Assembly (NCBI GenBank): GCA_947381965.1
Contig: CANCXX010000008.1
Location: forward strand, 1-64,000
Reading direction: 5' to 3'
DNA from: an uncultured bacterium
GTDB lineage: Bacteria; Bacillota; Clostridia; Lachnospirales; Lachnospiraceae
Length of the DNA stretch: 64,000 bases
Shown here: one piece after another, positions 11,011-28,904 of the stretch
Numbering within the stretch: position 1 is the stretch's first letter
How the letters are laid out: every line of letters begins with the position of its first letter
Position numbers and translations under genes: made by a program
Notes under the pieces: model-generated
The model's input: the letters and a program-made list of their open reading frames with translations, nothing else
Told to the model about the DNA's origin: nothing
The model's database searches: none

Positions 11011-11050
11011 CAAGTCTCTCCTGTCTGTATATTTTTTTCTCAGGCCATTC

Positions 11051-12331
11051 TTATTTCTGTTCCTTATTTTTCACTTCAGCCAGTAAAATAGTTCCTGTAA
11101 AGATTGTATTTGTTACTGATTTATATATTTTAAATTGATACCCCAGGTTTAACTTGTCCAAATAGGGAATTATTTTGAAAAAATCTGTTGCCGTATGATG
11201 CAGATGTATAATCAATGCCGGTTTTTGGGAAATCATGGTTTCTTCCGCCCCTTGTACTGCATCATATTCCATACCTTCTACATGCAGCTTTATTAACTCT
11301 AATTGAATATTTCTTTTTTTAACAAAATCGTCTATGCTGGTAACTCCAACCGTTTCTTCCGTATACTGTCTGCTATCATACGGAACCATGGTGCTCCAGT
11401 TAGATTCCGCGTTTTTGGAAATAATACTTTTACCCGATTTTCTACCTACAGCTTCATTTATAATTTCAATATTATCCACGTTATTTAATCTTATTGTCTC
11501 TCTAATCAGGCTGCAGTTGCTTTCCATAGGCTCCAGTGCATACACTTTTCCTTTTGTTTTTTTGGCAAATAATAATGACGTATCTCCTATAAATGCGCCG
11601 CAATCTAATATATCTTTTGAATTTGTAAATGTCTCTTCTGAAAACCATTCCATACCATACTGATAAAACAATACAAGCGGATCAAAATACTTTTTAGGCA
11701 ATACATATTCTTTATATCTGTATAGTTGTCCCTCCCGGATTATTTCAGAGTAAAAGTTGTTTTGTAATATTTCAATTTTTCTTTTTTCAGATGGACTAAA
11801 GATGTCAATTTCTTCATGAGAACAGGATAATATAACCCTGATTCTATCTAACAACTGCTCTATGATTTTTATATTTTCTTCATCCAAATGTGAACATAAT
11901 TCCTGAAAATCTTCTTTAGATTTTGTAGTTTCCAACAAATACTCATCCTGATATTGTTTCAAAGTATTTCTTTCATGTCTGGCATGTATATACAGGTACT
12001 TTCTATCCTCCTGCATTTTTTTTATTGCTTGATCATCAATAACTATATATCTGAAAATACCAGCTTCTTTCAGATTATCTATAATTTCCGAATGATACTT
12101 CAAAGACACTGCAATAACTATCAGCATTTTCTCATCTGGCTTAACTTCATATATTGAAAAGATATTTCTGCCTGATTCAGTCTTTTTTTCTGTAGGTTGT
12201 GTTTCTATAAAGAATGCAATTTCAATATCTTTTCTTTTACACTCTTTTTCAACCATTTTTCCAATTTTCCCATACCCGTATATGACAATTTTAATACCCT
12301 TTTCAAACTCTTTTTTTAAATATGTAAACAT
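11051..12331 (-). CDS. FkbM-family methyltransferase with N-terminal PglD-like Rossmann module
   Basis: 426 aa; AAAGGTGA precedes the ATG. Residues ~12-105 are the Rossmann module (IVIYGYGKIGKMVEKECK, LIVIAVSLKYHSEII). Residues ~215-400 are the methyltransferase, with ILDCGAFIGDTSLLFA (SAM loop), VYALEPMESNCSLIRE, IKLHVEGMEYD and the closing ALIIHLHH. The module is at the opposite end from the FkbM enzyme at 8541-9719. A mostly helical stretch (~110-210) links the halves. Probable glycan O-methyltransferase. It begins 12 bp after the radical SAM gene stop, in the same operon. Confidence 0.83.
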   Translation of the reverse strand: MFTYLKKEFEKGIKIVIYGYGKIGKMVEKECKRKDIEIAFFIETQPTEKKTESGRNIFSIYEVKPDEKMLIVIAVSLKYHSEIIDNLKEAGIFRYIVIDDQAIKKMQEDRKYLYIHARHERNTLKQYQDEYLLETTKSKEDFQELCSHLDEENIKIIEQLLDRIRVILSCSHEEIDIFSPSEKRKIEILQNNFYSEIIREGQLYRYKEYVLPKKYFDPLVLFYQYGMEWFSEETFTNSKDILDCGAFIGDTSLLFAKKTKGKVYALEPMESNCSLIRETIRLNNVDNIEIINEAVGRKSGKSIISKNAESNWSTMVPYDSRQYTEETVGVTSIDDFVKKRNIQLELIKLHVEGMEYDAVQGAEETMISQKPALIIHLHHTATDFFKIIPYLDKLNLGYQFKIYKSVTNTIFTGTILLAEVKNKEQK

Positions 12332-12343
12332 ATTTTCACCTTT

Positions 12344-13579
12344 CTATATCCATTCTGTAATTTCCTGCCTGCTTCTTGTCCAATCAAATTTAGGGGAAAG
12401 TCCACTGCAATATCTGCAGTATGTTCTGGGTTTTGAAGCAAATTCCAATATCTCTTTCATATCCTGTACTTTATAAATATCGAGATAATCCCCATCTGTA
12501 AGGCGCAGATTTTGATTATACTTTTTATTAAATATACGATAAGACTGACATGAGAAGGGACAGCCATAAAGCTTTCCTTCCATTAGGAAATTACCATAAT
12601 TTGAAACGTGGCAATTTGCAAAGCTTTTAACGGGATTACTGGTTCCTTCCAAATTAATAATCTTTTTAAAGCTTTTCTTTACAAAGTGATCTCCGGTTCC
12701 TTCAAAAAACTTAAAACTTACATTTTCTTCACTGGCTTTTCTCTTCATTTCTTCAAAATTAAGATTAATGGGATATTTCGTGTTAACTATTGTTACTTTA
12801 TTTTCTCTACATACCCTCCAAAATTCTTCATTTTGTCTTAATAATAAAAGTCCATTTGTAGTCAATCTGATTATTGCATATGGAAAAGACTCCCTTACAT
12901 CTTTCAGTATTTTATTAAGTTCCGGATGCAATAATGGTTCTCCTCCCATAACCGCTATTTGTACAATATTATCTCCCTTAAACAGCTCTGACATCCTTTT
13001 GATATCCCTGTGTATCGTTTCCTCCGGCACAAAATAGGGATCTGCTATACAGGCAAAATGATCGCACCCCTTACATCTCAAGTTACAATGATCTAAAATA
13101 TTAACAACCATATATTCTATGCAGGGTCTGGGAATAAACTTAAACATACTATTTTTTAATAAACTAATTTGCTCCTGAATTACTTGCGCTTCCCCCTTTG
13201 CTCCCATATTTCTATCCGCTGTATTTTCTGCAATCCATTGAAATAAACTGTTTGTTATATAATATACTTCTTTAAAATGATAATCCTTTATTTCACTCCG
13301 GATTTCGGAATGTAAGTTTTCCATAGTGCATACTAATAAAATTGTTTTTTCCGTTTTCTCCCTTTGTGTTCCAATTTCAACCACAGGTATATCTGATAAT
13401 TTATCCGGGTTACATTTTTTAGAAGATACAAATATATTGTTTATAATCATTCCTTTGGATATGCAGTATTTCAGCACTATTTTAGCCACTTTCCCAGCAC
13501 CGTATAAAGCTAATTTATTATTTTGCAAAGTCTCAACCAGCTCATCCGGTTTATTCAAATACTTCATTTCATTATCCAT
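12344..13579 (-). CDS. Radical SAM enzyme with N-terminal PglD-like Rossmann module
   Basis: 411 aa. Residues ~20-115 are the Rossmann module (LALYGAGKVAKIVLKYC ... ILLVCTMENLHSEI). The radical SAM core follows at ~155-330, with the 4Fe-4S ligands CNLRCKGCDHF (CxxxCxxC). The SAM-binding GGEPLLHPEL and the strand IIRLTTNGLLLL follow. Further Cys residues near the C-terminus (CPFSCQS and CRYCSG) could bind an auxiliary cluster. The reaction is unknown. In glycan loci such proteins could modify a sugar, lipid or peptide carrier. A second enzyme of the same design lies at 15266-16405. Confidence 0.85.
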   Translation of the reverse strand: MDNEMKYLNKPDELVETLQNNKLALYGAGKVAKIVLKYCISKGMIINNIFVSSKKCNPDKLSDIPVVEIGTQREKTEKTILLVCTMENLHSEIRSEIKDYHFKEVYYITNSLFQWIAENTADRNMGAKGEAQVIQEQISLLKNSMFKFIPRPCIEYMVVNILDHCNLRCKGCDHFACIADPYFVPEETIHRDIKRMSELFKGDNIVQIAVMGGEPLLHPELNKILKDVRESFPYAIIRLTTNGLLLLRQNEEFWRVCRENKVTIVNTKYPINLNFEEMKRKASEENVSFKFFEGTGDHFVKKSFKKIINLEGTSNPVKSFANCHVSNYGNFLMEGKLYGCPFSCQSYRIFNKKYNQNLRLTDGDYLDIYKVQDMKEILEFASKPRTYCRYCSGLSPKFDWTRSRQEITEWI

Positions 13580-13623
13580 ACTAATTTATCTCCAATTCTC
13601 ATTTCTCTTCAAGCTGTGAATAC

Positions 13624-14979
13624 TTAGTATTCCATTCCTGTGAATAAGTAGTACTCTATCCTCTCATTAGATATATCTGCCTTTTTTAACTGTCTTGCTA
13701 TATCCATATAGTGAAACTCATTTGCTATAATATATAGTGCATCCGGATATAATCTCTTACTTTCTTCCAAAGATAATATGTCTTTTCCAAACAACTGCTC
13801 TTTCTGCATTTTTTCATCATTATCACAAAATCCAACTACACTTTTAACGCCATTTTTATGTAACAGAATATATAGTCGGTTTCCACACAGACCAGCGCCA
13901 AAAATAATTATTTTATTCCAATTTTCTGCTTTTTCAATAATTAATTGCTGCGCATCCTGTTTCTGTTTATATTCATAATACAAACGCTGCAGATAACTTC
14001 TTTTATCCTCAATAAGCATCCTGATTTCTGTCAAACGGGAATACTTCAGACAATTTGGCAATAAATAACCTTTTTCCATTCCCCATATATATTCTTCCCG
14101 TATCTTGTCCAAAATGGAATCCATTTCCTCTGGTAATTCTCCATACTCCAATAACAGTCTTGCTACACGGTCCTTTACACTTGAACCGGTAAATCTTGCA
14201 AAGCACATCCACCAGTGCCAGCACATATTGTCAGAATTATTAATCAGAAAATCTTTTACAAATAAAAATTCATTGAAAAGATTGACTAATCCCTTCGGGT
14301 TTCTGATTGAGCTGTTTTCATTATCCTTCCTGTAATTATAAAGCCCATCCTCAATATACATCATCCTTCCGGCCTTGCACATAATCTGAACTTCTAATCC
14401 CCAATCCTGATACGCCGCCCCTGGGGTTTCATTTAATAATATATTTTTATCCCTCAAAAATTGGGTTTTATAAATCCCATTACATGTGGAATTATCCCGC
14501 CACATAATTTCCGGATAATCAGAGCCATTAATTACCACATTGTACATCCCCTCAAATTGCTTGCTCCCCAAAATCTGGGTTCTCCAAAAGACACGATGTT
14601 TTTCATCCACATTAATAAATGAATAGTAATTACACTTTGCACTGTCAAGATTATTTTTCTTTGCTGCATCATAAAGAAGTTCAAACATATTTTTCTCTAT
14701 ATAATCGTCGGTCTCCACAAAACCGATATATTCCCCACGCGCTAAAGCAATTCCCTGATTTTCCTGATACCCAAAACTTTTTTTGTCTGAATCCACAATC
14801 TTTATTCTGGAATCTCTCTTGGCAAATTCGGCAAGGATTTCTCTTGTTCCATCAGTAGAGCCTGCATCAATACAAATTATCTCAATATCCTGCAATGATT
14901 GATTCACGACGCTTTCCAGACACTCGCCAATATATTTTGCAACATTATAGGATGGCATAATAACTGATACTTTGCACAT
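13624..14979 (-). CDS. GT2 glycosyltransferase with C-terminal PglD-like Rossmann module
   Basis: 451 aa from ATG 14979 (AGAGAGGAAA upstream). The longer open frame upstream reads into a miniature element and is not used. Residues ~1-220 are a GT-A fold (VSVIMPSYNVAKYIGECLES, IDAGSTDGT, and ETDDY as the DxD-like metal site). Residues ~360-450 are the Rossmann module (IIIFGAGLCGNRLYILLHK, VVGFCDND). The predicted job is transfer of one sugar from a nucleotide donor to the growing glycan at the inner membrane face. The miniature element at 15009-15223 sits in the leader of this gene. Confidence 0.87.
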   Translation of the reverse strand: MCKVSVIMPSYNVAKYIGECLESVVNQSLQDIEIICIDAGSTDGTREILAEFAKRDSRIKIVDSDKKSFGYQENQGIALARGEYIGFVETDDYIEKNMFELLYDAAKKNNLDSAKCNYYSFINVDEKHRVFWRTQILGSKQFEGMYNVVINGSDYPEIMWRDNSTCNGIYKTQFLRDKNILLNETPGAAYQDWGLEVQIMCKAGRMMYIEDGLYNYRKDNENSSIRNPKGLVNLFNEFLFVKDFLINNSDNMCWHWWMCFARFTGSSVKDRVARLLLEYGELPEEMDSILDKIREEYIWGMEKGYLLPNCLKYSRLTEIRMLIEDKRSYLQRLYYEYKQKQDAQQLIIEKAENWNKIIIFGAGLCGNRLYILLHKNGVKSVVGFCDNDEKMQKEQLFGKDILSLEESKRLYPDALYIIANEFHYMDIARQLKKADISNERIEYYLFTGMEY

Positions 14980-15008
14980 ATTCGTTTTCCTCTCTTTTTT
15001 ATTTATAG

Positions 15009-15223
15009 TAGGTAATTGCGAAACTCGTAAACTTGCCAAATATTCTGACAATCTATTCTACGAAAAGCCTTATGCACCATGGAATCAAAACCATAGAAGG
15101 CAATAGGAACGCTACCCGACTGTCTTCTGTCCTGCTGGGCTTGATGGAATGCACGGTGCAACAGGATTTGAGTGGAATATATTGTCAGAATATTTCCATA
15201 ACTTCAAGTTTCGCAATTACCTA
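15009..15223. mobile_element. Miniature inverted-repeat element, copy A (215 bp)
   Basis: Terminal inverted repeats of 17 bp are perfect (TAGGTAATTGCGAAACT at 15009-15025 and its complement at 15207-15223). A second perfect 15-bp pair lies at 15038-15052 and 15181-15195, so the whole end region folds as an arm of about 43 bp. A perfect 10-bp direct repeat, TTATTTATAG, flanks it (14999-15008 and 15224-15233). A second, very similar copy in the same orientation is at 46810-47011. Copy A has about 13 bp more near the left arm. No transposase is encoded. It lies inside the glycan operon, just upstream of a GT2 start. Confidence 0.85.
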
Positions 15224-15265
15224 TTATTTATAGGATTCTCAAAAAACTTTATTAGTATTTTTTAC

Positions 15266-16405
15266 CTATATCCATTCATCCAATTGTTTCTTTGAACACT
15301 CAAATGGAATAAGTGTTTTTTCATCAGTCAGTTTACAATATCTGCATAGCTGCATAGGGCGTGTCAGAAATTCGGAAATTTCATCAGCGCTTTGGGCATC
15401 ATAAATATTTATTCCATTATTATCCAAAATTTCAATTTGTTTTAATCCAAAGTAATCTTTTAAATGATGAAGATTTGCCCCCACAACACATGAATACATT
15501 TTCCCATGACTTAGGAATATACAAAAATTGCCTCTGTAGCATTTATGGAAATTTTCTTCTATTGGCTGTTTCCCCTCAATGTCAAAATGATAATTCTCCA
15601 GAATTTTATTCCCGGCTTCATCTGTTACCATGGCAAATGGACGGTAAACAATTCCATACTTTTCTGCCTTTTTTTGTATTGCATTATAGTCAACTTTGAT
15701 TGGATAATGTGTGGGTCTAAATTCAATATTGTATTCTTTTGCGGCAATCCAAAACTTTTCTTCCATTTGAGGCATCAGAATCCCATTTGTAATTAACGCA
15801 ATTGTTCCTTTGGGGAAACAGGTTCTGGCCACCCGGAAAAATTCTGTAATATCCGGATGAAGCAGGGGCTCTCCGCCCAAAAGTTCCATATATTCCAAAT
15901 TTCCATGATATAACTCTGACAGCCTTTGACAATCCCTTTGAAATTCTTCCACCGATAAAAACTCTTCTTTTGCCAGCGGACTGCAATGAAAACACCCTCG
16001 GCAATTTAAATTACAGTGTTCCGTAATATGAACTTCAAACTTCAGGGATTTTCTTGGTGTCAGATGCGTTACATCTATAGAGCATTTTTTAATCATGTCG
16101 TCGGAAAGCAGTATATAATCTGACAGTTCATACCTTGAAAGCATATCCGCAATTTCTGCTCTGTATAAGTTCTTTACACAAACAATAATCAATGCACCGG
16201 GATACGTTAGTTTTACATTACTTACCTCAATCACAGGTCTGTCCATACACACTCTCTCATTATCTGCCTGTGAAACAACAAATCCCTTTACATAGTCATC
16301 CAGATGACGGAATTGCAGCCACTGCATAAACGTTCTGGCTACACCCCCTTTTCCATACAAAAGAACCTCCTGATGATTCTTAATATTTCCTATCATTTCA
16401 TTCAT
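15266..16405 (-). CDS. Radical SAM enzyme with N-terminal PglD-like Rossmann module (second)
   Basis: 379 aa from ATG 16405, which has GGAGG at 7-nt spacing. A longer reading into the neighbouring gene was discarded. Residues ~13-110 are the Rossmann module (VLLYGKGGVARTFMQWLQ, ALIIVCVKNLYRAEI). The radical SAM core follows: CNLNCRGCFHC (CxxxCxxC), LLGGEPLLHPDI and IALITNGILM. Late Cys residues include CYRGNFC and CRYCK. It resembles the enzyme at 12344-13579 in size and layout but differs through most of its length. The two may act in series or on different substrates. Confidence 0.85.
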   Translation of the reverse strand: MNEMIGNIKNHQEVLLYGKGGVARTFMQWLQFRHLDDYVKGFVVSQADNERVCMDRPVIEVSNVKLTYPGALIIVCVKNLYRAEIADMLSRYELSDYILLSDDMIKKCSIDVTHLTPRKSLKFEVHITEHCNLNCRGCFHCSPLAKEEFLSVEEFQRDCQRLSELYHGNLEYMELLGGEPLLHPDITEFFRVARTCFPKGTIALITNGILMPQMEEKFWIAAKEYNIEFRPTHYPIKVDYNAIQKKAEKYGIVYRPFAMVTDEAGNKILENYHFDIEGKQPIEENFHKCYRGNFCIFLSHGKMYSCVVGANLHHLKDYFGLKQIEILDNNGINIYDAQSADEISEFLTRPMQLCRYCKLTDEKTLIPFECSKKQLDEWI

Positions 16406-16442
16406 TTTTTTTCCTCCATCTCTTATTTTTCTTTCTGGCAAT

Positions 16443-17669
16443 TTATACTTTCTGTGCAATTTTATCAATTAAGTCAGAAAGCAAAATCGTATTAGTATAT
16501 TTTTGTTTAGTCAAGTTCCCGATAATTGACTTTCCCGTTTCATTTAATGGCGTTACAACTATCAAAGTATCCTTATTTATACAGGAAAGATCCTGTATTA
16601 CTTTTATGTCATAAAATGAAGTAATTCTCCGGTCCACTCCATACAATATACTGATTTCAGAATCCTTTAACTCCCAAAACAGTAATTTTGCCATATCGCC
16701 TAAACCATATAGGATTATCTCCGAAATATTTTTTTCCTTTAAATAATCAGAAATGCCATATTTCTTTTTACATAGTTCCTTAAGCAATACCATATAGTAA
16801 AAAATCACTTTTTTTTCATACTTCTGTGGCAGCATTCGTCCTATTTCACATAAAATATTCTGCGTCTCATCATTATCATCATTTAACACCATTTCTAAAT
16901 AATCATGACCAATTCTGCGCAGTAATTTTTTTTGAAGTAATTCCAAATGATATTCTTTTGCCAGCTGAAAGTTATCTCTTATCCCTCTTAAACAATCTAC
17001 AATCCTCATCTTTCTTTCCAGTGTCTGATGCGTATTTTTCCTAAAGCAGTACAACTCTACAGGCAATACCCAAAACTTTTCAGCCTGCAGCATAGCCTTA
17101 AGAAAAAAAGGAGGATCCTGATATCTTCTGTAATGTGGAAATACAATATGATTTTTTTTAAGCATATCCCTTTCAAATATATAACATTGGTAATGAAAGT
17201 CCTCCTGATAATCTCTATAATATATTAATTTTCCATCCGGCCTGCCTGCACAAATCTCTCTATGTAAATTAGCAATTTGGATTTCACCGGTTTGGGAATC
17301 AAATATTTGAAGAAACCCTCCACAAATCTTCACATGGTTTTTTTGACAGGCCTCTGTCATTTTATCCAGTGCATAACAATCCACGTAACAATCATCCGCA
17401 TCCAGAAAGCATACAAATTTTCCCCTGGCGATTTCCAGGCCTCTGTTTCTCGCAGGTCCTGCACCGCTGTTTTCCTGTGCAATAACAGATATATATTTAT
17501 ATTTTTCTGCATATGTACTTAAAATATCCAGCGAACGGTCTGTAGAACCATCATCAATACATATAATTTCTTTTGGAAAAACGGTCTGTGTAATTGCACT
17601 TTCCAAACATTTGCTTATAGTTTCTTCCGCATTATATACTGGAATAATAATTGATACTTTTATCTCCAT
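16443..17669 (-). CDS. GT2 glycosyltransferase with C-terminal PglD-like Rossmann module
   Basis: 408 aa from ATG 17669 (GGGAG, 9-nt spacing). Residues 1-220 are GT-A (VSIIIPVYNAEETISKCLES, IDDGSTDRS, the metal site LDADD). Residues ~310-400 are the Rossmann module, the most degenerate in the set (IILYGLGDMAKLLFWEL, TLIVVTPLNETGKSII). A middle helical region (~225-300) resembles that of the next gene. It belongs to the minus-strand glycan operon. The acceptor and donor are unknown. Confidence 0.87.
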   Translation of the reverse strand: MEIKVSIIIPVYNAEETISKCLESAITQTVFPKEIICIDDGSTDRSLDILSTYAEKYKYISVIAQENSGAGPARNRGLEIARGKFVCFLDADDCYVDCYALDKMTEACQKNHVKICGGFLQIFDSQTGEIQIANLHREICAGRPDGKLIYYRDYQEDFHYQCYIFERDMLKKNHIVFPHYRRYQDPPFFLKAMLQAEKFWVLPVELYCFRKNTHQTLERKMRIVDCLRGIRDNFQLAKEYHLELLQKKLLRRIGHDYLEMVLNDDNDETQNILCEIGRMLPQKYEKKVIFYYMVLLKELCKKKYGISDYLKEKNISEIILYGLGDMAKLLFWELKDSEISILYGVDRRITSFYDIKVIQDLSCINKDTLIVVTPLNETGKSIIGNLTKQKYTNTILLSDLIDKIAQKV

Positions 17670-17728
17670 GATATATTTCTCCCATATCTGCAAGCTTTAC
17701 TATATCTTTTTATTCTGCTTCATTAAGG

Positions 17729-18970
17729 TTATACCATAACATCATTCCACCCTATGATATTGTGTTCATCAGCCCCCATTGAAACCAGTTCTTTTTCTAT
17801 ACTATATCTAACCTGTTCATCTTCAACTGCAATCAAAATCCGGTCATATTGATATGTGACAACTTCCTCAATACCGTGAATCTCCACTCCTTTGTATACC
17901 TCTCCTGCCTTATACTTATCAATCCACAGATATTCAACGGTCGTCTCATTTAAAAGAATATTTTGACATTTTTTCCCTGCATTACCTGCTCCATAAAGAA
18001 TCATTTTTTCTATCCCTTCCAGGAATTTTTTTAATTTTTGGACTTCTGCATATTTCTGATATTCATCTGCAGTACTCTTTTGAATCAAAAGCGCATACAA
18101 AGGCTCTATTTTATATTCTTGTTCTGTCTGACCTATTGCTTTTTCTGCTGTAAGCATCAACTCTAACAATTCTATGTTATGAATATCCAATCCCTCATAT
18201 AATACTTTGAAATAATCATTATTTATTCTTTTTAATGTCAGTTTAAACAGATTAATTAATCCTTTTTCCCAGGCAAACATTAAATTAAAATACAGACCTC
18301 TGAATAAGTCATTTGTTTTTTCTTTGTTATATAATATTCTTTTGTGTCCAAATCTGTATCCGTAAAATTCAACACCGGCAATCCTAAAAGCTCCTGCACA
18401 AAATAAGGCCTGCACCAGAAAAGGAGGATCCTGATAACGCAGAAGGGAAGGGAATGCAAGATTATTTTTTTCCAGAAATACTTTCCTAAACAGGTAATTC
18501 TGATAGCCGTAATCGTACTGAAAATCAGTATATGATACAACTGTCGTATTTTTGTCTTTCAGATAATCTCTTAGTATTTTATTCTTAATCACATTTCCAT
18601 CTGAAAAATTCTGCTGTAATCCTGCACATATGTCTTCATCATAATCTGAAGCATATCTGTATAACTGCCAAAGAGAAGCATTTTCAATAAAGAAATCATC
18701 TGCATCCAAAAAACAGACATACTCTCCAGCAGCTTTTCTTATTCCAAGGTTTCTTGCAGGTCCCGCACCGCGTCCAGGCTGTGTGAGCAATTGAATATTA
18801 TGAAATTTACCTGCAAATTCCTTTATGATCTCAACAGAATGATCATTGCTTCCATCATCTATACATATCAATTCTTTTTCTTCTAGTGTCTGTTTTACGA
18901 AACTCTCCAATGCTTTTTTGATATATTTTTCTTCATTGTAAACTGGCATAATAACTGATACTTTTATCAT
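17729..18970 (-). CDS. GT2 glycosyltransferase with C-terminal PglD-like Rossmann module
   Basis: 413 aa; GGGGG precedes the ATG. The GT-A core is clear (VSVIMPVYNEEKYIKKALES, IDDGSNDHS, FLDADDFF), as is GRGAGPARNLGI, which is shared with the preceding GT2. Residues ~315-410 carry the Rossmann module (MILYGAGNAGKKCQNILL, ILIAVEDEQVRYSI). The N-terminal halves of this protein and of 16443-17669 look like products of a gene duplication. Confidence 0.87.
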   Translation of the reverse strand: MIKVSVIMPVYNEEKYIKKALESFVKQTLEEKELICIDDGSNDHSVEIIKEFAGKFHNIQLLTQPGRGAGPARNLGIRKAAGEYVCFLDADDFFIENASLWQLYRYASDYDEDICAGLQQNFSDGNVIKNKILRDYLKDKNTTVVSYTDFQYDYGYQNYLFRKVFLEKNNLAFPSLLRYQDPPFLVQALFCAGAFRIAGVEFYGYRFGHKRILYNKEKTNDLFRGLYFNLMFAWEKGLINLFKLTLKRINNDYFKVLYEGLDIHNIELLELMLTAEKAIGQTEQEYKIEPLYALLIQKSTADEYQKYAEVQKLKKFLEGIEKMILYGAGNAGKKCQNILLNETTVEYLWIDKYKAGEVYKGVEIHGIEEVVTYQYDRILIAVEDEQVRYSIEKELVSMGADEHNIIGWNDVMV

Positions 18971-19018
18971 TTATATACCCCCACATATCATAATCTGTGT
19001 CCCAATGGCGCCATAGCC

Positions 19019-20326
19019 TTACATATCAGCTCCCATTGATTTGGGAACAATTATATTATGGAACCCCAATATAGACAGCTTCTCCTTTATCTCTTCCCGG
19101 TATTTTTTTGTCACCCCAACAATTACTGCCGTTTCTTCTCTATTATCTATGTATTCTCCAATATACTTAATTGGATAGTTTTCTATAAATGTCAAATTGC
19201 TCTCTGCATCCGATACCGCAAACCCCAGACATTTTCTTCTGTCATCCTCACTTAATCCTTTGAATATGCGTTTACCAACCATACCTGCGCCATATATAAG
19301 AAAACTTTCAAATTTCAGTAGATTTTCATGAATTTCATCTTTTAATCCTGCAAATGAGAAATATGCCTCCTTTGGCATGTACATCACAAAAAGTAATTCA
19401 TCTTTCAACTCTTCTGGCATACTACTAATGTCAAGAATACCTGTATGTTCATAATATCTGAATTCTTCACTAATCTTATACAAAGTTTCTTTTTTCTCGT
19501 TATCGTAGCTTCGTGACAGTGCATATCTGCAACTCTCATACTCCCGCCGGAAAAATTCCGGGAGATATTCATGATACATATAATCCATCTTCAGTAATTT
19601 ATTTAATGTCATTCTGTATTCCATAAATACTTTGTCTATGCCGCTCCTGCCTGATATTGACGAATTAGGATTATCATGTCTATAATTATAAAACGCCCGT
19701 GACAACACCATAATTCTCTCTGCAAGAATCAATGATAAAAAGCAAAAGCCAGTATCCTGGAATGCTGCTCCCGCAGTCTCATTATGAAAAATACTGTTTT
19801 CCAAAAGGAATTTTTTGCGAAACAATCCTGCAGGATTGATATACTTTCCCTGAAGTATATTCGTATCATTTCTTGGATTTAATACTCTTTCATACATTTG
19901 CAAATCATTATATATTGTATGTTTTTCAAAAACGCGCCGTCCTTTTTCATCATAGAACCATCTGTAATCTGAATTTACTATATCAAGCTCATACTGTTTT
20001 GCCGCTCCATATAATGTATGCAGCATATCATTCTCAATATAGTCATCCGGTTCAATAATACTGATGTACTCCCCCTTTGCTTGTCTTATGCCAAGATTGA
20101 CAGTATGTCCATATCCTTTATTTTCTTTTGTAATAACTTTAATTCTTTTGTCTGCCAGGGCATATCGTCTTAAAACGGCAAGACTATCGTCTGTAGAACC
20201 ATCATCAATACAAATTATTTCAAGTTTGTCAAGTGACTGTGCCAGCACGCTATCCACACATTCCTTTAAATAAGGAAATGCGTTATAAACCGGAATCACC
20301 ACTGACACTTTAATTCCTTCCGTCAT
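19019..20326 (-). CDS. GT2 glycosyltransferase with C-terminal PglD-like Rossmann module
   Basis: 435 aa, starting 3 nt after the glf stop, with its AGAGGA site inside the end of glf. The GT-A core has VSVVIPVYNAFPYLKECVDS, IDDGSTDDS and EPDDYIENDM. Residues ~345-430 are the Rossmann module (FLIYGAGMVGKRIFKGL, AVIVGVTKKYREEI). It is probably translationally coupled to glf. That fits, but does not prove, use of a UDP-galactofuranose donor. Confidence 0.87.
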   Translation of the reverse strand: MTEGIKVSVVIPVYNAFPYLKECVDSVLAQSLDKLEIICIDDGSTDDSLAVLRRYALADKRIKVITKENKGYGHTVNLGIRQAKGEYISIIEPDDYIENDMLHTLYGAAKQYELDIVNSDYRWFYDEKGRRVFEKHTIYNDLQMYERVLNPRNDTNILQGKYINPAGLFRKKFLLENSIFHNETAGAAFQDTGFCFLSLILAERIMVLSRAFYNYRHDNPNSSISGRSGIDKVFMEYRMTLNKLLKMDYMYHEYLPEFFRREYESCRYALSRSYDNEKKETLYKISEEFRYYEHTGILDISSMPEELKDELLFVMYMPKEAYFSFAGLKDEIHENLLKFESFLIYGAGMVGKRIFKGLSEDDRRKCLGFAVSDAESNLTFIENYPIKYIGEYIDNREETAVIVGVTKKYREEIKEKLSILGFHNIIVPKSMGADM

Positions 20327-20329
20327 GCT

Positions 20330-21427
20330 TCAGTATCCTCTTAAAAGCTTTCCAGACAAATCAAGCGCCGCTTTGACCGTATCTTGCATATCATAATATT
20401 GATAGCTGCCCAGACGTCCGCCAAAAATTACTTTTCTCTCTTTGTCTGCATCTTTTCTGTACCTCTCATATCTTTTCATGTTTTCCATATCATTGATTGG
20501 ATAATACGGTTCCATTCCCTTCTTCCATGCTAAGGGATATTCTCTGGAGATAACAGTTTTTTCCTGTTGCCCAAATACAAAATGTTTATGTTCAATCACT
20601 CTGGTATAAGGAACCTCTGCACCTGTATAATTTACAACTGCAACTCCCTGATAATTATCCGTATTCAATACTTCCGTTTCAAAACGCAGGCTGCGGTATT
20701 CAAGTTCTCCATATTTATAATTAAAATAAGAATCTATTGTTCCGCTGTATAATATTTTATAAGCCTTATTCCCCAATTCACGGTTATCCAGATAGTCTGT
20801 TTCAAGCATCACATCACAATTGCAAAACATCTTTTCAAAAACAGGGGTAAAGCCTTCTATGGGAATTCCCTGATACCTGTCCAGGTAATAATTATTATCG
20901 TAGGTAAATCTAAGAGGAATTCTTTTCATAATAGAGGCCGGAAGCTGGCTGCACCTTTTTCCCCACTGTTTTTCCGTATATCCTTTAATTAACTTTTCAT
21001 AAATATCAACACCAGCCATGCCAATTGCATGTTCCTCTAAATTACGGGCTGGCCGGTTTACTTCCACACTTTGCTCTGCAATCATTTTCTTCGCTTCATC
21101 TGGTGTTTTAATTCCCCACAACCTTGAAAATGTATTCATATTAAAAGGAAGATTGTATAATTCATCCTTATATATTGCCACAGGAGAATTAATAAAATGA
21201 TTAAACTCCGCAAACTGCTGCATATATTCCCATATTCTTTTATCTGAAGTCCGAAAAATATGCGCTCCATACTTATGTACAATTATTTTTTCTATCTCCT
21301 CTGTGTAACAATTTCCCCCAATATGGTTGCGTTTTTCTACAACCAGACACTTCTTTCCATGCTTTGATAGTTCACAGGCCAGTACAGCATTAAACAATCC
21401 GGCGCCTACCAACAAATAATCATACAT
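20330..21427 (-). CDS. glf: UDP-galactopyranose mutase
   Basis: 365 aa, the usual length. GAGGAGGG lies 8 nt before the ATG. The N-terminal FAD-binding GAGLFNAVLACELSKHG (GxGxxxA) ends in the acidic strand VVEK and is followed by RNHIGGN. GAHIFRTSD, the R-rich YTEKQWGKRC and the late FGGRLGSYQYYDM are conserved Glf landmarks. It converts UDP-galactopyranose to UDP-galactofuranose using reduced flavin in the cytoplasm. Its presence predicts galactofuranose in the surface glycan. It is the third gene of the operon, directly followed by a GT2 gene. Confidence 0.95.
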   Translation of the reverse strand: MYDYLLVGAGLFNAVLACELSKHGKKCLVVEKRNHIGGNCYTEEIEKIIVHKYGAHIFRTSDKRIWEYMQQFAEFNHFINSPVAIYKDELYNLPFNMNTFSRLWGIKTPDEAKKMIAEQSVEVNRPARNLEEHAIGMAGVDIYEKLIKGYTEKQWGKRCSQLPASIMKRIPLRFTYDNNYYLDRYQGIPIEGFTPVFEKMFCNCDVMLETDYLDNRELGNKAYKILYSGTIDSYFNYKYGELEYRSLRFETEVLNTDNYQGVAVVNYTGAEVPYTRVIEHKHFVFGQQEKTVISREYPLAWKKGMEPYYPINDMENMKRYERYRKDADKERKVIFGGRLGSYQYYDMQDTVKAALDLSGKLLRGY

Positions 21428-21442
21428 AAAAATATCCCTCCT

Positions 21443-22465
21443 CTACACCTCAAATATTGATTTTTCCGGGAGCAGCTTAGCAAATGCCTGATTAATTGCA
21501 GACTTGATTTTCTCAAATTCTTTCCATGAACATTCTTCATTTAAACTAACCATCTGCCATTCCTGATTTTTGATGGAATCTGCAATTTCTTTATAATTTT
21601 CTGACGTAACCAAAAACGATTTTCCAAGAGTCCTTCTTGGAATAAAATTACCTTCACATAACTGCCAATAACGAATAAGATATTGGGATAAATCTGTTTC
21701 TCCGCGAAACCGATTCATTGAAGCCCTGTGCAAAGTCTCCGGCTCTGTTTCCCATAATTTTTGCAGTGTTTCCTTTTTCATTGCATTTGCCATGTGCGGG
21801 TCACGAAAACCGCAAAAATTATTCCAATAGTGTAATCCTTCATTTCTATGTACAAGATCACCATATGCCTCACAAAACCATTTGTCATAATTTTTCTTTT
21901 GCACTTCCCGCTTGCAAAAATGCCGGTTAATAAAAAGAATGTTATTAGCCTTCATCCGGCATGACCACCCGGAAATCGAACCAATATCCACCGGCATAAT
22001 TGGATTTTCCACTGCTTCGTCACAAACTCTGTTATCTTTAAAAAAATATGTTTCAGCAATAGACTGTAAGGGGAACACATCATCATTAAACAATATAAAA
22101 TTTTCTGATAATTCCTTTATTCTATGAACATTCATTTCAATTGTATTAGAATTAAATGTAGGCAGATATTCCTGTGGGATATAATCACTATGTCTGACTA
22201 TTTGAAGCTTTGAGCAGCTTTGCTTTAGAAATACGGGTACATGACCCCAGGTTAAAAAAAATATCTTATGTACCCATGGCATGAATCTTTCTACCGCCCG
22301 GAACCAGTATTGCAAATTACCCCAATTAAACCATCGGACGTCAGAATTTGCTTTTATCTCTATATTCTGTTTTTGCAGGCAGATTAACTTTTCCTCTTTC
22401 CATTTGGGGTCAGAACCATCTACCCAGGGAATTACAATATCAACCAAATTACTTTTGTCATTCAT
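21443..22465 (-). CDS. Stealth-family sugar-phosphate transferase
   Basis: 340 aa; GAGGG before the ATG. The family signature is present: CR1 IVIPWVDGSDPKW at residue ~10, then a CR2-like FILFNDDVF with the Asp pair, and CR3-like FCGFRDPHMANAMKKE. Stealth proteins are hexose-1-phosphate transferases that build phosphodiester-linked capsules, as in GlcNAc-1-P polymers. Here one could add a phosphosugar to the glycan alongside the TagF-like transferase upstream, predicting a phosphate-containing, teichoic-like polymer. Confidence 0.88.
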   Translation of the reverse strand: MNDKSNLVDIVIPWVDGSDPKWKEEKLICLQKQNIEIKANSDVRWFNWGNLQYWFRAVERFMPWVHKIFFLTWGHVPVFLKQSCSKLQIVRHSDYIPQEYLPTFNSNTIEMNVHRIKELSENFILFNDDVFPLQSIAETYFFKDNRVCDEAVENPIMPVDIGSISGWSCRMKANNILFINRHFCKREVQKKNYDKWFCEAYGDLVHRNEGLHYWNNFCGFRDPHMANAMKKETLQKLWETEPETLHRASMNRFRGETDLSQYLIRYWQLCEGNFIPRRTLGKSFLVTSENYKEIADSIKNQEWQMVSLNEECSWKEFEKIKSAINQAFAKLLPEKSIFEV

Positions 22466-22494: not shown

Positions 22495-23844
22495 TTACTT
22501 AAGAACCTCTATATTCTGCATCATAACAGGCTTTCCTGTTTCTCTGTACAGACGCACAATACTGCTTAAATCTCCATAATACGCATCGCTCAAACACACC
22601 GCCCTGTTCATATCCGGGCTGTCATCATAAATTCCCCATGCCTCTTTCCTATATTGCTCTACAATTTTGTGATACTCCTGTCTAAGTTCCGGGCGCATAC
22701 TGTCTATAGTCGCTTTAATCAATGGGTGGGGACGCCACAGAAGTACTGCCTCCTCCTGATTTTGTTTAAAAACATCAAACACATATCTTATCTTTCTTAA
22801 CATTTTTTCTTCATACTTCAGCAGCGCTGATACACTGGTATTGTATAGAATAACTTTTTTCCAGCTTCCATTTTTTTTTCGGATAATTTTCAGCCATGCC
22901 TCCGGAATTTTTATATTCTCACGTTTTGTACTTAGCACCTTATCTATCTTAGGAGACCCCAAACCTAAAATTTTTTCTTCCCATGTTTTTTTGGTATTTT
23001 TCCCCATTTCTTTTGTAAGAACATTAATATATATCCGCCGCATATCTTCTGACTGCACCACTACCTTATCCGCATAAAATACTCCTGGCACCGTACAGAA
23101 ATGCTGCATACTTTCCACAACTTCTTTATTTTGAGGATCTATTTCATTTAATATAAAATAAGGCACATAAACTAATCTTTCTGTAAACTTCTTTAGATTT
23201 ATGGAATAAAAAAAGGGATGTACACTGGTAACATGATTACTGTCATCGTAAGGATTATGGATATAAATCATATCTGGTCTGCGCTTCTCAAAATCATACC
23301 TGTTATAATCTACCACAGGAACATATTCAGGATATAAATCTCCTTCATAATGAAGCTCCCGAAAACTTCCATCCGGATTCTTATCATAATAAGGAATGGG
23401 AATTACATACGCATCACAGTCCGGATCTTCCTCTGCCGCCTTCCAGATACTTTCCAGCGAATCCCACATAGATGCCTTATATGGCAGAAACACGATTTCT
23501 GTTCGTACTTTAATATCATTTTTCACACTGTTCTTTATTTGTATCAGAGACTTCCGCAGACTTTTATACAGCTTATCTGCATTTTTTATCTGTTTACCTG
23601 GAATTTCTTCATGTATCTGGTAAACAAGCTCACAATAATCTTCCAGTAAGGAGATTGTCCGAACTTCCTCCCCTTCCGTCGTTTCAATCAAACCGCCCAT
23701 TCTGATTGCAATATCCTGGCATTGTTCCAGTAAATTCAGTGTTATGTCATAATTTCTGGTTTCAAATGCCCTTTTCACTGCTCCATGGGCGCGTTCAAGC
23801 AGATTGATGAATTGGTCAACCTGATTTTTCTGTGTTTTTCTCAT
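22495..23844 (-). CDS. TagF/TagB-like (CDP-glycerol glycerophosphotransferase-type) GT-B protein
   Basis: 449 aa, first gene of the glycan operon. An N-terminal helical region (~1-110) precedes a GT-B-like body. The C-terminal part has LLWRPHPLIKATI and SDAYYGDLSSIVRLYRETGKPV, matching the SD...D.SS....Y...KP pattern of the glycerophosphotransferase family. The middle has VPYFILNEIDPQ and YADKVVVQSEDMRRIY. The activated polyol phosphate donor might be made by the cytidylyltransferase at the operon end. The assignment is at family level only, because the first two thirds are diverged. Confidence 0.7.
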   Translation of the reverse strand: MRKTQKNQVDQFINLLERAHGAVKRAFETRNYDITLNLLEQCQDIAIRMGGLIETTEGEEVRTISLLEDYCELVYQIHEEIPGKQIKNADKLYKSLRKSLIQIKNSVKNDIKVRTEIVFLPYKASMWDSLESIWKAAEEDPDCDAYVIPIPYYDKNPDGSFRELHYEGDLYPEYVPVVDYNRYDFEKRRPDMIYIHNPYDDSNHVTSVHPFFYSINLKKFTERLVYVPYFILNEIDPQNKEVVESMQHFCTVPGVFYADKVVVQSEDMRRIYINVLTKEMGKNTKKTWEEKILGLGSPKIDKVLSTKRENIKIPEAWLKIIRKKNGSWKKVILYNTSVSALLKYEEKMLRKIRYVFDVFKQNQEEAVLLWRPHPLIKATIDSMRPELRQEYHKIVEQYRKEAWGIYDDSPDMNRAVCLSDAYYGDLSSIVRLYRETGKPVMMQNIEVLK

Positions 23845-23896: not shown

Positions 23897-23919
23897 AAAT
23901 TCTTTATTTTTAAATAAGG

Positions 23920-24242
23920 TACATTGGTCATCTTCCGATGATACAGGTTGTTCCCATAGGTTTTTCCTGTTTCGCTCCCTGGTACATCACAAAGTATTAC
24001 GCTCACATGCTTTAACCTGCATTTTACTTACCTGTTATGGCATAGCAATTTGTGTTCCCAGAGTCCTGGCATACCCAATACGCGGGCATCTATTTTCTTC
24101 CCGCCTTCTAATGCCGTAATATCTTTTTTATATCATAAACTTCTGCCCAGTCCCTGGTTAAAACAAAATAATGTTTCTCCCTCCGGGTTAAATCAAGATT
24201 CATCACCTTTATTTATCTGAACATTTGTTTTTCTGATCTGAA
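23920..24242 (-). ncRNA. Candidate omega-like guide RNA region downstream of the dead TnpB gene
   Basis: About 320 nt without a gene follow the TnpB-like stop on the same strand, where TnpB elements encode their guide RNA. The stretch contains a stem TCATC-GGAA-GATGA with a GNRA-type tetraloop (23928-23941, minus strand). The hexamer TGTACC occurs twice on the minus strand, once on each side of this stem. The block GGGAGCGAAACAGG looks structured. If it is a scaffold, the guide would read into 23900-23920, towards the glycan operon promoter. The limits are guesses. Confidence 0.4.
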
Positions 24243-25547
24243 TTACATTTCGTTTTTTCCACGATTTCTTATATTTTGTGCAGCATTGTGTTTTTCCTGT
24301 GTCTGATACCCACATACCTGGCAGATAAATGTTCCTTCTCTCTTATATCCATCTGCTCCGCACCTGCTGCACTCACTGCTGATTCCCTTGCCAAACACTT
24401 CCACAACTTTTACTGATTTTTCCTGACATTTTTGATACAGTCTGTTTTTGATATACCCTCTCTGCCAGAGATTAACAGAATGATTAATTGCTTTATCTCC
24501 CTCGTGTTTTTTAGGAGGCGGCAGTCTGGGAATAAAAATAACTGCTGGTTTTTCTGTTTTTAAAAAACGATTTAGTTCCATATTGATATAGCTGTGCATC
24601 TGTTCCGTCATCCGATGTTTTCTGGCAGTATATTTTTTCCTACCATATAAATCTCCTTTGTCCGCTTTATGCTTTACTGCCTGTTCCCTAATCCAGTCCG
24701 AAAGTTGAATCTGATACTCTCCAAGCCTTTCACCATAAACATGTCCTTCGTCGGTAGTAAGCATTGTATACATTCCCAAAGCCAGACCCGTCTGTCTTTT
24801 ATAATCTTTGTTTCTTTGGATTTTCACATCTATGGGGACATTAATTTCTATGTTTCCTTCCTGCGGATAAAGCTTTATACCTATCTGTCTGTTATACTGG
24901 TTATTGTCTGTAAGAGGTATAAATACACGTTTTCTTTTTTCTTTAATGGTTATATAAATTCCATGATTGCCATAGCGGTAAGCTCTTTCTGTCAATGAAA
25001 ATCCATCTGAATTTTCCGAATACTGCTTCACATGTAAACTTCTTACCTGTCTGCATAAATAATTATTCAGTTTTTTAGTGTTCACATTTTTAGAAAGCTG
25101 TTCGTATTTTTCCTGCAGCTCAGCCTTCAATTTAACTGGCTTGTGATTTAATACTTCTTCAAAAGCATTACTTACCTTTAACAAGTACCTTAAGTAATGC
25201 TTTTCCTCATCAGTAAACCCTTCATTAGAATTAACTCTCTTAAGTACTGCCGTTTTCGTTTTGGTCCACTGGCTTTTGATATTTCCAATAGCCTCAAAAA
25301 CGGCAAGATTAAAATAAACAAACGGCAGTTCCAACTCGTTCCGCAGTCCTGTTTCAATCATTTCATTTTGCACAGTATATCCCGGATAAATTTTTGACAA
25401 ACTGTTTATCCCGCCAAAACGGGCATATACATAATTTTTCACCTTGTTATAATCATCTGCAATTTCCTGAAGCTTCTCCATATCCTTGCCGGAAATTACT
25501 TTGCTGTTATATTGGTGAACTGTTTTACATACTTTTTCTGGCGGCAT
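24243..25547 (-). CDS. TnpB homologue with all three RuvC catalytic acids replaced (TldR-like)
   Basis: 434 aa, full length, no frameshift. The C-terminal RuvC-like half is recognisable by QTGLALGMY (RuvC-I), VIFIPRLPPPKKH (RuvC-II), a zinc ribbon with C393, C396, C409 and C412, and QEKHNAAQNI (RuvC-III). In active TnpB these read G-x-D-L-G, I-E-D-L and D-x-NAA. Here the acids are Ala256, Pro340 and Lys419. The zinc finger and overall fold residues are kept, so this is not simple decay. The established parallel is TldR, nuclease-dead TnpB that acts as an RNA-guided repressor. A recombinase gene lies upstream on the same strand and the glycan operon downstream. The start has only a weak AGGAT site. 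Function is inferred. Confidence 0.85.
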   Translation of the reverse strand: MPPEKVCKTVHQYNSKVISGKDMEKLQEIADDYNKVKNYVYARFGGINSLSKIYPGYTVQNEMIETGLRNELELPFVYFNLAVFEAIGNIKSQWTKTKTAVLKRVNSNEGFTDEEKHYLRYLLKVSNAFEEVLNHKPVKLKAELQEKYEQLSKNVNTKKLNNYLCRQVRSLHVKQYSENSDGFSLTERAYRYGNHGIYITIKEKRKRVFIPLTDNNQYNRQIGIKLYPQEGNIEINVPIDVKIQRNKDYKRQTGLALGMYTMLTTDEGHVYGERLGEYQIQLSDWIREQAVKHKADKGDLYGRKKYTARKHRMTEQMHSYINMELNRFLKTEKPAVIFIPRLPPPKKHEGDKAINHSVNLWQRGYIKNRLYQKCQEKSVKVVEVFGKGISSECSRCGADGYKREGTFICQVCGYQTQEKHNAAQNIRNRGKNEM

Positions 25548-25603: not shown

Positions 25604-25627
25604 TTGCACAAGGTATACTTTTTGCAA
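25604..25627. promoter_or_regulatory. Imperfect palindromic recombinase-type site (site 1)
   Basis: A 24-bp imperfect palindrome, symmetrical at 20 of 24 positions, centred on GGTATAC and starting TTGCACAAGG. It resembles the perfect palindrome 125 bp away at 25729-25752. It lies between the recombinase gene and the TnpB-like gene, 57 bp before the latter. Confidence 0.5.
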
Positions 25628-25728
25628 AGATTTTTATGGTCCAAATTACCAGAAAAAAATTATTAATTATCTTGAAAATTTGACGATAATATATTAGAAT
25701 AAACTAGATTCTTTTAAGTTATCTGTTC

Positions 25729-25752
25729 TTGCAAAAGGTATACCTTTTGCAA
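25729..25752. promoter_or_regulatory. Perfect 24-bp palindrome, probable recombinase binding site (site 2)
   Basis: Each half reads TTGCAAAAGGTA, giving a perfect 24-bp palindrome with central AT. Small serine recombinases bind sites of this size and symmetry (about 26 bp, central 2-bp crossover). It lies 33 bp after the recombinase stop. Its spacing of 125 bp from site 1 is close to twelve helical turns. A res-like site or operator pair is the best guess. Confidence 0.55.
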
Positions 25753-25785: not shown

Positions 25786-26403
25786 TCACAACAAAATATC
25801 CATTTCTTCTTTTTTAAATCCTCTTGCCCGCCTATAAAATGTATCTGTTGTAAGATTACACTGCATTGCCGCCTCCTTTGCCGATATTTCCTTTGCCATC
25901 CATTTACCATATATCTGACTGAAGTTTTCCGGTACAGGCTTTTTAGGTCTTCCAAACTGTACCCCCCGCAGTTTTGCCGCTTCAATGCCCTCCCGCTGTC
26001 TGTTTCTAATGTTGCACCTCTCATTTTCACTAACATAGCTAAACAACGCCAGTACTAAATCTGCAATCAAAGTTCCAAGCAAATCCTTTCCTCTTCTGGT
26101 ATCCAAAAGCGGCATATCCATCACCACTACATCCACCTTCTTCTCCTTTGTCAAAACTCTCCACTGTTCCAATATTTCCTCATAATTCCTGCCCAGCCGG
26201 TCAATACTTTTGATATACAGTAAATCATCTGGCCTTAGCTTCCTTAACAACTTTTTATACATAGGACGTTCAAAATCCTTTCCTGATTGTTTATCTATAA
26301 AAATATTTTTTAGAGGTACATGAATTTCCCCCATGGCAATCATCTGCCTGTCCTCATTTTGTTCTTTTGTGCTGACCCGAACATATCCATAAGTACTTCC
26401 CAT
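25786..26403 (-). CDS. Small serine recombinase (resolvase/invertase type)
   Basis: 205 aa; AGGAGGGG precedes the ATG. The N-terminal catalytic domain has the nucleophile Ser11 in YVRVSTKEQ, plus SIDRLGRN with R69 and R72. The E-helix region ERCNIRNRQREGIEAA follows. The C-terminal ~45 residues, after GRPKK, form a Hin/resolvase-like helix-turn-helix (ISAKEAAMQCNLTTDTFYRR). This order is that of resolvases and invertases, not of IS607 TnpA, whose DNA-binding domain is N-terminal. It cuts and rejoins DNA at short palindromic sites, probably the pair at 25604-25752. It forms a two-gene unit with the dead TnpB. Confidence 0.92.
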   Translation of the reverse strand: MGSTYGYVRVSTKEQNEDRQMIAMGEIHVPLKNIFIDKQSGKDFERPMYKKLLRKLRPDDLLYIKSIDRLGRNYEEILEQWRVLTKEKKVDVVVMDMPLLDTRRGKDLLGTLIADLVLALFSYVSENERCNIRNRQREGIEAAKLRGVQFGRPKKPVPENFSQIYGKWMAKEISAKEAAMQCNLTTDTFYRRARGFKKEEMDILL

Positions 26404-28715: not shown

Positions 28716-28904
28716 CCGTTCTCCCATCCCGCACCATTAAATGAGACGTTTTTATCTTTCATTCTTCCAGTGCGTCTTCTTTATACAGTATCCCAAGGTT
28801 GCTTTTTTAAACGTACCATATTTTTACTGACAACTCAACGGGCTTAAAAAATTCTTAATAATAATTAAAAGTAATTATAATAATTAAAGCTCAAAATTGT
28901 AATT
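28716..28904. other. AT-rich intergenic region
   Basis: This gap lies between the stator operon start and the LacI regulator stop. It contains a very AT-rich stretch (28845-28890) with two near-identical copies of TAATAATTAAA. It must hold the stator operon promoter, but no strong consensus boxes were identified. Confidence 0.3.

What the first reader, a model, noticed from the sequence alone, without database searches (positions are those of the whole stretch)
24243..25547. TnpB homologue with all three RuvC catalytic acids replaced: a TldR-like RNA-guided regulator?
Aligned by eye to the TnpB core, the RuvC-I Asp is Ala256 (GLALG), the RuvC-II Glu is Pro340 (IPRL) and the RuvC-III Asp is Lys419 (KHNAA). 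The four zinc-ribbon Cys and the reading frame are intact. Loss of exactly the catalytic residues with the fold kept points to selection for binding without cutting. TldR proteins are the known precedent. The gene sits upstream of, and in line with, a large glycan operon, so it could be a guide-directed switch for surface structure.
Basis: partly seen in the sequence, partly recalled or inferred. Interest (0 to 1): 0.88.

Follow-up and report, generated by a model that had tools for sequence, protein, structure and literature searches.

The report
Dead TnpB heading switchable glycan operons
In gut Lachnospiraceae a relative of a DNA-cutting protein that has lost its cutting residues sits, with its own structured RNA, between a flippable promoter and genes for surface sugars, so it probably acts as an RNA-carrying regulator of which surface coat the cell makes.

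Summary
The ORF (minus strand) is an intact TnpB homologue with all three RuvC acids replaced (A256, P340, K419), one of six such paralogues in this genome. Of 90 loci examined (own six included), 0 has an acid at any of the three positions; the nearest intact relatives found (33-35% identity, intron-bearing elements) keep D, E, D. Close pairs show purifying selection (median dN/dS 0.077).

(1) A covarying, pseudoknotted RNA directly downstream: in five genomes 27 dTnpB loci and 27 RNA loci pair one to one. By eye its 3' end matches the RNA end of the intact relatives, and the ten bases at the guide position (RURYYUUAUU) are conserved across loci. (2) An invertible promoter upstream, seen in both orientations among relatives; the window copy reads OFF. 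A surface-glycan or secreted-protein operon follows.

Best reading: a TldR-like RNA-guided regulator of phase-variable surface operons. RNA and inverton are well supported by sequence. Guide-directed DNA binding is inferred: target-like sites lie in 16 of 85 leaders, not the window's, and none matches its own guide perfectly. Nearest precedent: csrA-linked TldRs with hin and an inverton.

The parts
24243..25547 (-). nuclease-dead TnpB homologue (dTnpB), 434 aa
   Evidence: intact ORF; PF07282; dead at three RuvC positions
24780..24782 (-). codon of Ala256, RuvC-I Asp position
   Evidence: alignment with 90 loci and with intact relatives L137/L138
24528..24530 (-). codon of Pro340, RuvC-II Glu position
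24291..24293 (-). codon of Lys419, RuvC-III Asp position
23913..24217 (-). structured RNA (omega-RNA-like); core 23913-24123 is the covariance-model match, 5' domain to about 24217 by conservation
   Evidence: CM R1 hit G000:C8:23913-24123; covariation in relatives; coordinates
24075..24079 (-). pseudoknot arm 1 (ATTGG)
23923..23927 (-). pseudoknot arm 2 (CCAAT), presumed end of scaffold
23913..23922 (-). guide-position sequence GTACCTTATT (family RTRYYTTATT)
   Evidence: conservation profile; position equivalent by eye to the guide start in intact relatives
25604..25627 (.). inverton site proximal to dTnpB
   Evidence: inverted-repeat script, sequence
25729..25752 (.). inverton site distal to dTnpB
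25672..25700 (+). promoter-like TTGAAA-N17-TAGAAT inside the invertible segment, pointing away from dTnpB (OFF phase)
25786..26403 (-). serine recombinase / DNA invertase, presumed to flip the segment
   Evidence: PF00239 E 3e-25, PHROG 125 DNA invertase
22495..23844 (-). first gene of the glycan operon, Glyphos_transf-like
   Evidence: PF04464 E 1e-6; same family first in 43 of 87 loci
9742..22465 (-). next ten genes of the operon that were tested: Stealth, UDP-galactopyranose mutase, four GT2, two radical SAM, one FkbM methyltransferase, one without hit

Best explanation
This is a TldR-like RNA-guided regulator built into a phase-variable surface operon. A recombinase flips a promoter segment of roughly 100 bp. 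In the ON phase one transcript carries dTnpB, then its own pseudoknotted RNA, then the glycan (or secreted-protein) genes. dTnpB binds that RNA to form a ribonucleoprotein that cannot cut. The ten conserved bases after the pseudoknot (RURYYUUAUU) serve as guide. The complex binds DNA sites of the form AAGTWTAT-RTRYYTTATT in the leaders of some of these operons and blocks transcription there, so the locus that is ON can damp its own or sister operons. Shown by sequence: dead active site under selection, RNA partner, inverton in both orientations, operon order. Inferred: co-transcription, RNP formation, use of the ten bases as guide, DNA binding, repression.
For: 0 of 90 loci with a catalytic acid; median dN/dS 0.077 over 43 usable of 58 pairs; 29 dead rows on one side of a 100/100 branch, intact L137/L138 on the other. 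RNA: 25 of 36 predicted pairs with compensatory changes in 28 sequences; named structure on 30 sequences 97.4% of cells paired, 23 of 33 pairs with double changes against 11.1 in shuffles, pseudoknot 100% paired; CM hits 80 of 80 loci given, out of 91 held, 30 of them used to build it; 27 dTnpB and 27 RNA loci one to one in five genomes. Guide position: the two intact relatives' elements are identical up to AACCAG and then diverge; our RNA ends GACCAAU then RURYYUUAUU. Target-like sites: 16 of 85 leaders at <=1 mismatch against 0.05 expected; nine perfect matches in five genomes, reversed-pattern control 0, eight of the nine at dTnpB loci. Inverton: 60 of 82 loci with serine-type sites against 0 of 77 control windows; of 238 segment pairs that aligned well, 178 same-phase pairs align forward and 60 opposite-phase pairs reversed. 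Downstream genes co-directional 379 to 3. Precedent: TldR guides of 6 nt suffice, and most csrA-TldR loci carry hin, with ~120-bp inversions (PMC13418256, section 11 and passages).
Against: Target-like sites are in 16 of 85 leaders; the window's own leader has none. No site matches the guide of its own locus at all ten bases (0 of 20, 1.3 expected); in-genome trans matches 6 of 17 against 3.5 expected, not significant. A looser site pattern is not clearly enriched genome-wide (32 against 23 control matches). The insertion flanks of the intact relatives suggest another motif (GGAG) before the target (by eye). CM R1 does not detect the intact relatives' RNA, so that homology rests on eye alignment. 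The variable R/Y positions lie where a seed would be.
Confidence: 0.58

Rival explanations
1. dTnpB binds the RNA in cis on its own operon mRNA leader and controls translation, processing or elongation of the glycan genes, without DNA targeting. The RURYYUUAUU tail is then an RNA motif, not a guide.
For: The RNA lies inside the operon leader, in many loci ending a few tens of bases before the first start codon; the tail varies almost only by transitions, as expected for an RNA-pairing or protein motif; guide and site states are not concordant within loci.
Against: The tail sits at the guide position of the intact relatives (by eye), and the second site carries a different conserved 5' flank, as a target-adjacent motif would. 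No terminator-like site in the window leader (0, shuffles mean 1.5); my stricter script found 0 in 86 leaders but also 0 in shuffles, so it says little.
Confidence: 0.27
2. The RNP acts on the inversion itself, for instance biasing recombination to OFF or to one locus at a time.
For: The inverton adjoins dTnpB; 48 of 57 resolved phases are OFF (90 loci, 33 unresolved), and in five genomes 20 of 27 loci read OFF, none ON, seven undetermined.
Against: A scan for the guide's ten bases (<=1 mismatch) near the loci showed no recurrent hit at the recombination sites; two kinds of sites, serine- and tyrosine-type, serve the same position; two assemblies have two ON loci each (L014 and L047; L032 and L053). 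OFF bias can come from culture or selection.
Confidence: 0.1
3. Decayed transposon relic hitch-hiking in a glycan locus.
For: The three acids are lost; TnpB genes are common mobile passengers (general knowledge).
Against: Full-length frame in 90 of 90, dN/dS median 0.077, covarying RNA one to one, fixed operon position.
Confidence: 0.02

Closest known systems
csrA-associated TldRs of Oscillibacter/Flavonifractor (PMC13418256; section 11 read, other passages by term search)
   Same: nuclease-dead TnpB, cis guide RNA, hin recombinase upstream of most loci, ~120-bp inversions carrying a promoter, four loci in one Oscillibacter strain, surface structure as output
   Different: There flagellin and CsrA, targets inside fliC ORFs, binding shown by RIP-seq and ChIP-seq. 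Here glycan or secreted-protein operons, csrA not linked, one nearly universal guide-position sequence, RNA inside the operon leader, two kinds of inversion sites; relationship by sequence not tested
fliC-associated phage TldR (same paper, passages; original report Wiegand 2024 not held, recalled)
   Same: dead RuvC, RNA-guided, changes a surface structure; L090 is a phage-type contig with such a cassette
   Different: there a prophage repressor of host fliC; here mostly paralogues at the head of the operon itself
TnpB of IStron-like elements (L137, L138; IStron survey PMC4227781 seen in listing only)
   Same: 33-35% full-length identity; RNA downstream ending in CCAG, by eye equivalent to CCAAU
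   Different: D, E, D intact, within an element with a group-I-intron-like 5' part (by eye), variable flank at the guide position
Bacteroides UpxY/UpxZ capsule regulators (PMC7315117, passages)
   Same: works alike: regulators at the start of glycan operons, some promoters inverted stochastically, several loci per genome
   Different: protein antiterminator and its trans inhibitor, no RNA guide; homology not tested

Membership tests
TldR (TnpB-like nuclease-dead repressor) | TnpB homologue with RuvC acids lost | tested here: met
   0 of 90 with any acid at three positions; intact relatives aligned
TldR | retained under selection and linked to non-transposon genes | tested here: met
   dN/dS median 0.077; operon association
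TldR | cis-encoded guide RNA of TnpB type | tested here: met
   structure and one-to-one association; binding by the protein not tested, kinship with known omega-RNA by eye only
TldR | guide matches a DNA target near a regulated gene | tested here: inconclusive
   sites in 16 of 85 leaders, no perfect match in cis
TldR | RNA-guided DNA binding and repression | not testable with these tools
   needs RIP-seq, ChIP-seq, expression
csrA-TldR clade | linked csrA (and fliC) | tested here: not met
   seven CsrA places in five genomes, none near any of the 27 dTnpB loci. fliC was not searched for; none among the 15 window proteins scanned
active TnpB/IS605 or IS607 element | catalytic D, E, D | tested here: not met
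IS607 element | IS607 transposase beside tnpB | tested here: not met
   neighbour scores 22 bits against a 110-bit cutoff for IS607; best as DNA invertase
inverton (phase-variable promoter) | inverted sites, promoter inside, both orientations seen | tested here: met
   in relatives; for the window locus itself only one orientation was seen

The most novel reading that the evidence does not exclude
An RNA-guided mutual-silencing network: the phase-variable surface operons of a Lachnospiraceae genome each carry their own dead TnpB and almost the same short guide, so that whichever locus flips ON makes an RNP that silences sister operons, an RNA-guided counterpart of Bacteroides UpxZ, evolved from an IStron-type nuclease.
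Probability: 0.27. Interest if true: 0.93.

Novelty: new variant of a known kind. Interest (0 to 1): 0.8.

Why it matters
If true, a domesticated relative of the CRISPR nucleases governs surface-coat choice in a major family of gut bacteria. It gives many natural replicates (192 relatives in one scan, seven loci each in two of five genomes looked at whole) of an RNA-guided regulator with a nearly fixed short guide and a covarying scaffold. The coupling of inverton, dead nuclease and RNA can be tested directly in commensals that are already isolated. It also adds to TldRs a lineage whose nearest intact kin found here are IStron-like nucleases.

Tried and rejected
Target inside the first glycan gene (VYVPYF codons): rejected; CCT is enriched (19 of 43 against 21% in the family), but the next Tyr codon is not biased towards TAT (28 of 43 against 77%). 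Cis guide-site concordance and in-genome cross-matching: not significant. Genome-wide targets with a looser pattern: not clearly above control. The stretch upstream of the RNA core read as a -10 promoter: rejected, because in many loci a variable hairpin splits it. Antitermination: no terminator seen, but the script control also gave none. Rfam: no match up to E 1 in L001-L006. Strict one-ON-per-genome exclusion: contradicted by two assemblies with two ON loci. Phages: no match; plasmids: one distant Thermus zinc-ribbon protein. The fold was taken at wrong coordinates (inside the intact relative's gene) and is not used.

Full report
Observation. The ORF at 24243-25547 lies on the minus strand, is full length (434 aa) and has Ala256, Pro340 and Lys419 at the RuvC positions. 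Over its cut-off Pfam finds only the C-terminal zinc-ribbon domain; NCBIfam guided_TnpB scores below its cutoff (51 of 100 bits); PHROG 'transposase' E 3e-15. The genome assembly (96.66% complete, 92 contigs) holds six full-length paralogues, the other five at 51-56% identity, and PF07282 finds no other protein.

Family. A scan of the species-genome collection found 192 relatives and returned the best 80; with six own, three from relatives and one viral contig this gave 90 loci, of which L007 and L011 are the same stretch. All 90 have an intact long frame. 0 of 90 has an acid at any of the three positions; the four zinc cysteines are present in 90 of 90. Genomes with a match: 4 of 60 relatives, own included, and 4 of 391 of the class, own included, so the family is patchy. 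Two of the latter, L137 and L138, are the nearest intact relatives found: GIDKG, VMEQL/VMENL, DTNAS. Their 5' flank looks like a group I intron by eye, as in IStrons. In a tree of 31 sequences the 29 dead rows lie on one side of a 100/100 branch, but L009 is a long branch that meets the intact pair and the bootstrap had not settled, so the deep order is unsure. dN/dS in close pairs: median 0.077, maximum 0.198 (43 usable of 58 pairs).

RNA. The stretch between dTnpB and the operon is conserved in blocks across the six paralogues and relatives. RNAalifold on 28 sequences: 36 pairs, 25 with compensatory changes. On 30 sequences the named structure with pseudoknot is 97.4% paired with 23 of 33 pairs doubly changed (shuffles 11.1 +- 1.8, 0 of 500), slid controls 29-43% paired. 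The five-pair pseudoknot AUUGG/CCAAU is complete in 73 of 84 rows of the fitted alignment; the other eleven are eight half-matches of four long-insert loci, L061 (misaligned there), L136 (four pairs, one compensated) and L009 (not aligned there; UCGC/GCGA by eye); L090 shows two compensated changes. The covariance model finds the RNA in 80 of 80 loci given, out of 91 held, 30 of which built it. In five genomes 33 RNA matches collapse, by my reading of the positions, to 27 places, each just downstream of one of 27 dTnpB loci, none elsewhere. The model does not match the intact relatives, and Rfam gives no match in L001-L006.

Guide position. The two intact elements are identical up to AGAACCAG and then diverge into host genes; by eye, ACGG..ACUGGUACAUCCAAGAC there corresponds to ACGG..AUUGGGUAUGCCAGGAC here, and CCAG to CCAAU. 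After CCAAU our family keeps RTRYYTTATT (positions 0-9), varying almost only by transitions, then a W-rich stretch to about position 15 and little beyond (80 non-redundant of 86 sequences). Sites AAGTWTAT-RTRYYTTATT occur further on in 16 of 85 leaders at <=1 mismatch (0.05 expected). In five genomes there are nine perfect matches, control 0, eight of them at dTnpB loci. Against: no perfect match in cis (0 of 20, 1.3 expected), trans matches 6 of 17 with 3.5 expected, no site in the window leader, looser pattern 32 against 23 control.

Inverton. Of 82 loci with at least 250 bases upstream, 60 have an inverted pair of sites 80-140 bp apart (control windows 0 of 77), and L064 and L085 have duplicated arms. 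Of the other 20, nine have long inverted dyads of tyrosine-recombinase type by eye, with no control run: L023, L060, L079 and L084 250-370 bp apart, L063, L071, L082, L083 and L087 about 1.35 kb apart; L084's dyad differs in sequence from the TTTCGCAGA type of the rest. In L063, L071, L082 and L083 that segment holds an integrase-family gene, which points either way in different loci; two integrases tested are Phage_integrase (L009, L136). Eleven loci show no clear pair. The serine-type segment carries promoters of the kind TTGACTTATTGTCGATAATATATTAGAAT; phase: 9 ON, 48 OFF, 33 unresolved of 90. Of segment pairs with alignment score of at least 100, 178 same-phase pairs align forward and 60 opposite-phase pairs reversed, without exception (the phase call uses part of the same segment). 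Window: sites 25604-25627 and 25729-25752, promoter 25672-25700 on +, OFF. In five genomes 20 of 27 loci read OFF, none ON, seven not determined. Genes of the serine-recombinase cluster lie within the fetched stretch of 10 loci, of the integrase cluster in 8.

Operon. Downstream ORFs of at least 150 aa within 6 kb are co-directional 379 to 3. The first gene is Glyphos_transf-like in 43 of 87 loci and a short membrane-type protein in 14 of 87, followed in 9 of these 14 by a secreted-type protein; neither has a family hit over cut-off. The window operon encodes Stealth, UDP-galactopyranose mutase, GT2, radical SAM and FkbM proteins.

Mechanism and place among known systems. I file it as a TldR-like variant. 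Features met: dead TnpB, selection, cis guide-type RNA, operon link; inconclusive: target; untestable here: binding. The closest report is csrA-TldR with hin and ~120-bp inversions in gut commensals (PMC13418256: section 11 and term passages read; its main text has no 'glycan', 'polysaccharide' or 'Lachnospir'). Here csrA is not linked: seven CsrA places in five genomes, none near the 27 loci. UpxY/UpxZ is a functional analogue (PMC7315117, passages). Library searches for a glycan-linked or Lachnospiraceae TldR listed none, but Wiegand 2024 and Altae-Tran 2023 are not held and may list this clade.

Noticed in passing
window 26672-28727 (-): A MotA/MotB-type pair scoring as ZorB (E 8e-65) and ZorA (E 9e-18) of Zorya defence, directly upstream of the recombinase-dTnpB block.
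   Followed up: partly
L090:208-13213: Phage-type contig (collagen-repeat protein, GH25 lysin) carrying the whole cassette: serine recombinase, inverted sites, dTnpB, RNA, glycan genes; looks like lysogenic conversion of the surface.
   Followed up: partly
L064, L037, L053, L035, L036, L076, L085 upstream regions: Long perfect or near-perfect inverted duplications around the inverton, perhaps assemblies that hold both phases; ON calls for L037, L053 and L085 should be taken with care.
   Followed up: no
L078:8315-8606: The RNA 3' end motif (GACCAATATAT) occurs twice.
   Followed up: no
G062:C23:288423-289880: A dTnpB read as two matches in one open frame (526 aa), apparently with an in-frame insertion near residue 140.
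   Followed up: no
L015:8800-10470 and similar (clusters 3 and 5): A short membrane-type protein plus a secreted-type protein without Pfam or NCBIfam hit over cut-off, recurrent behind dTnpB.
   Followed up: partly
L063, L071, L082, L083 upstream: An integrase-family gene lies inside the presumed invertible segment, so the recombinase gene itself would flip.
   Followed up: partly
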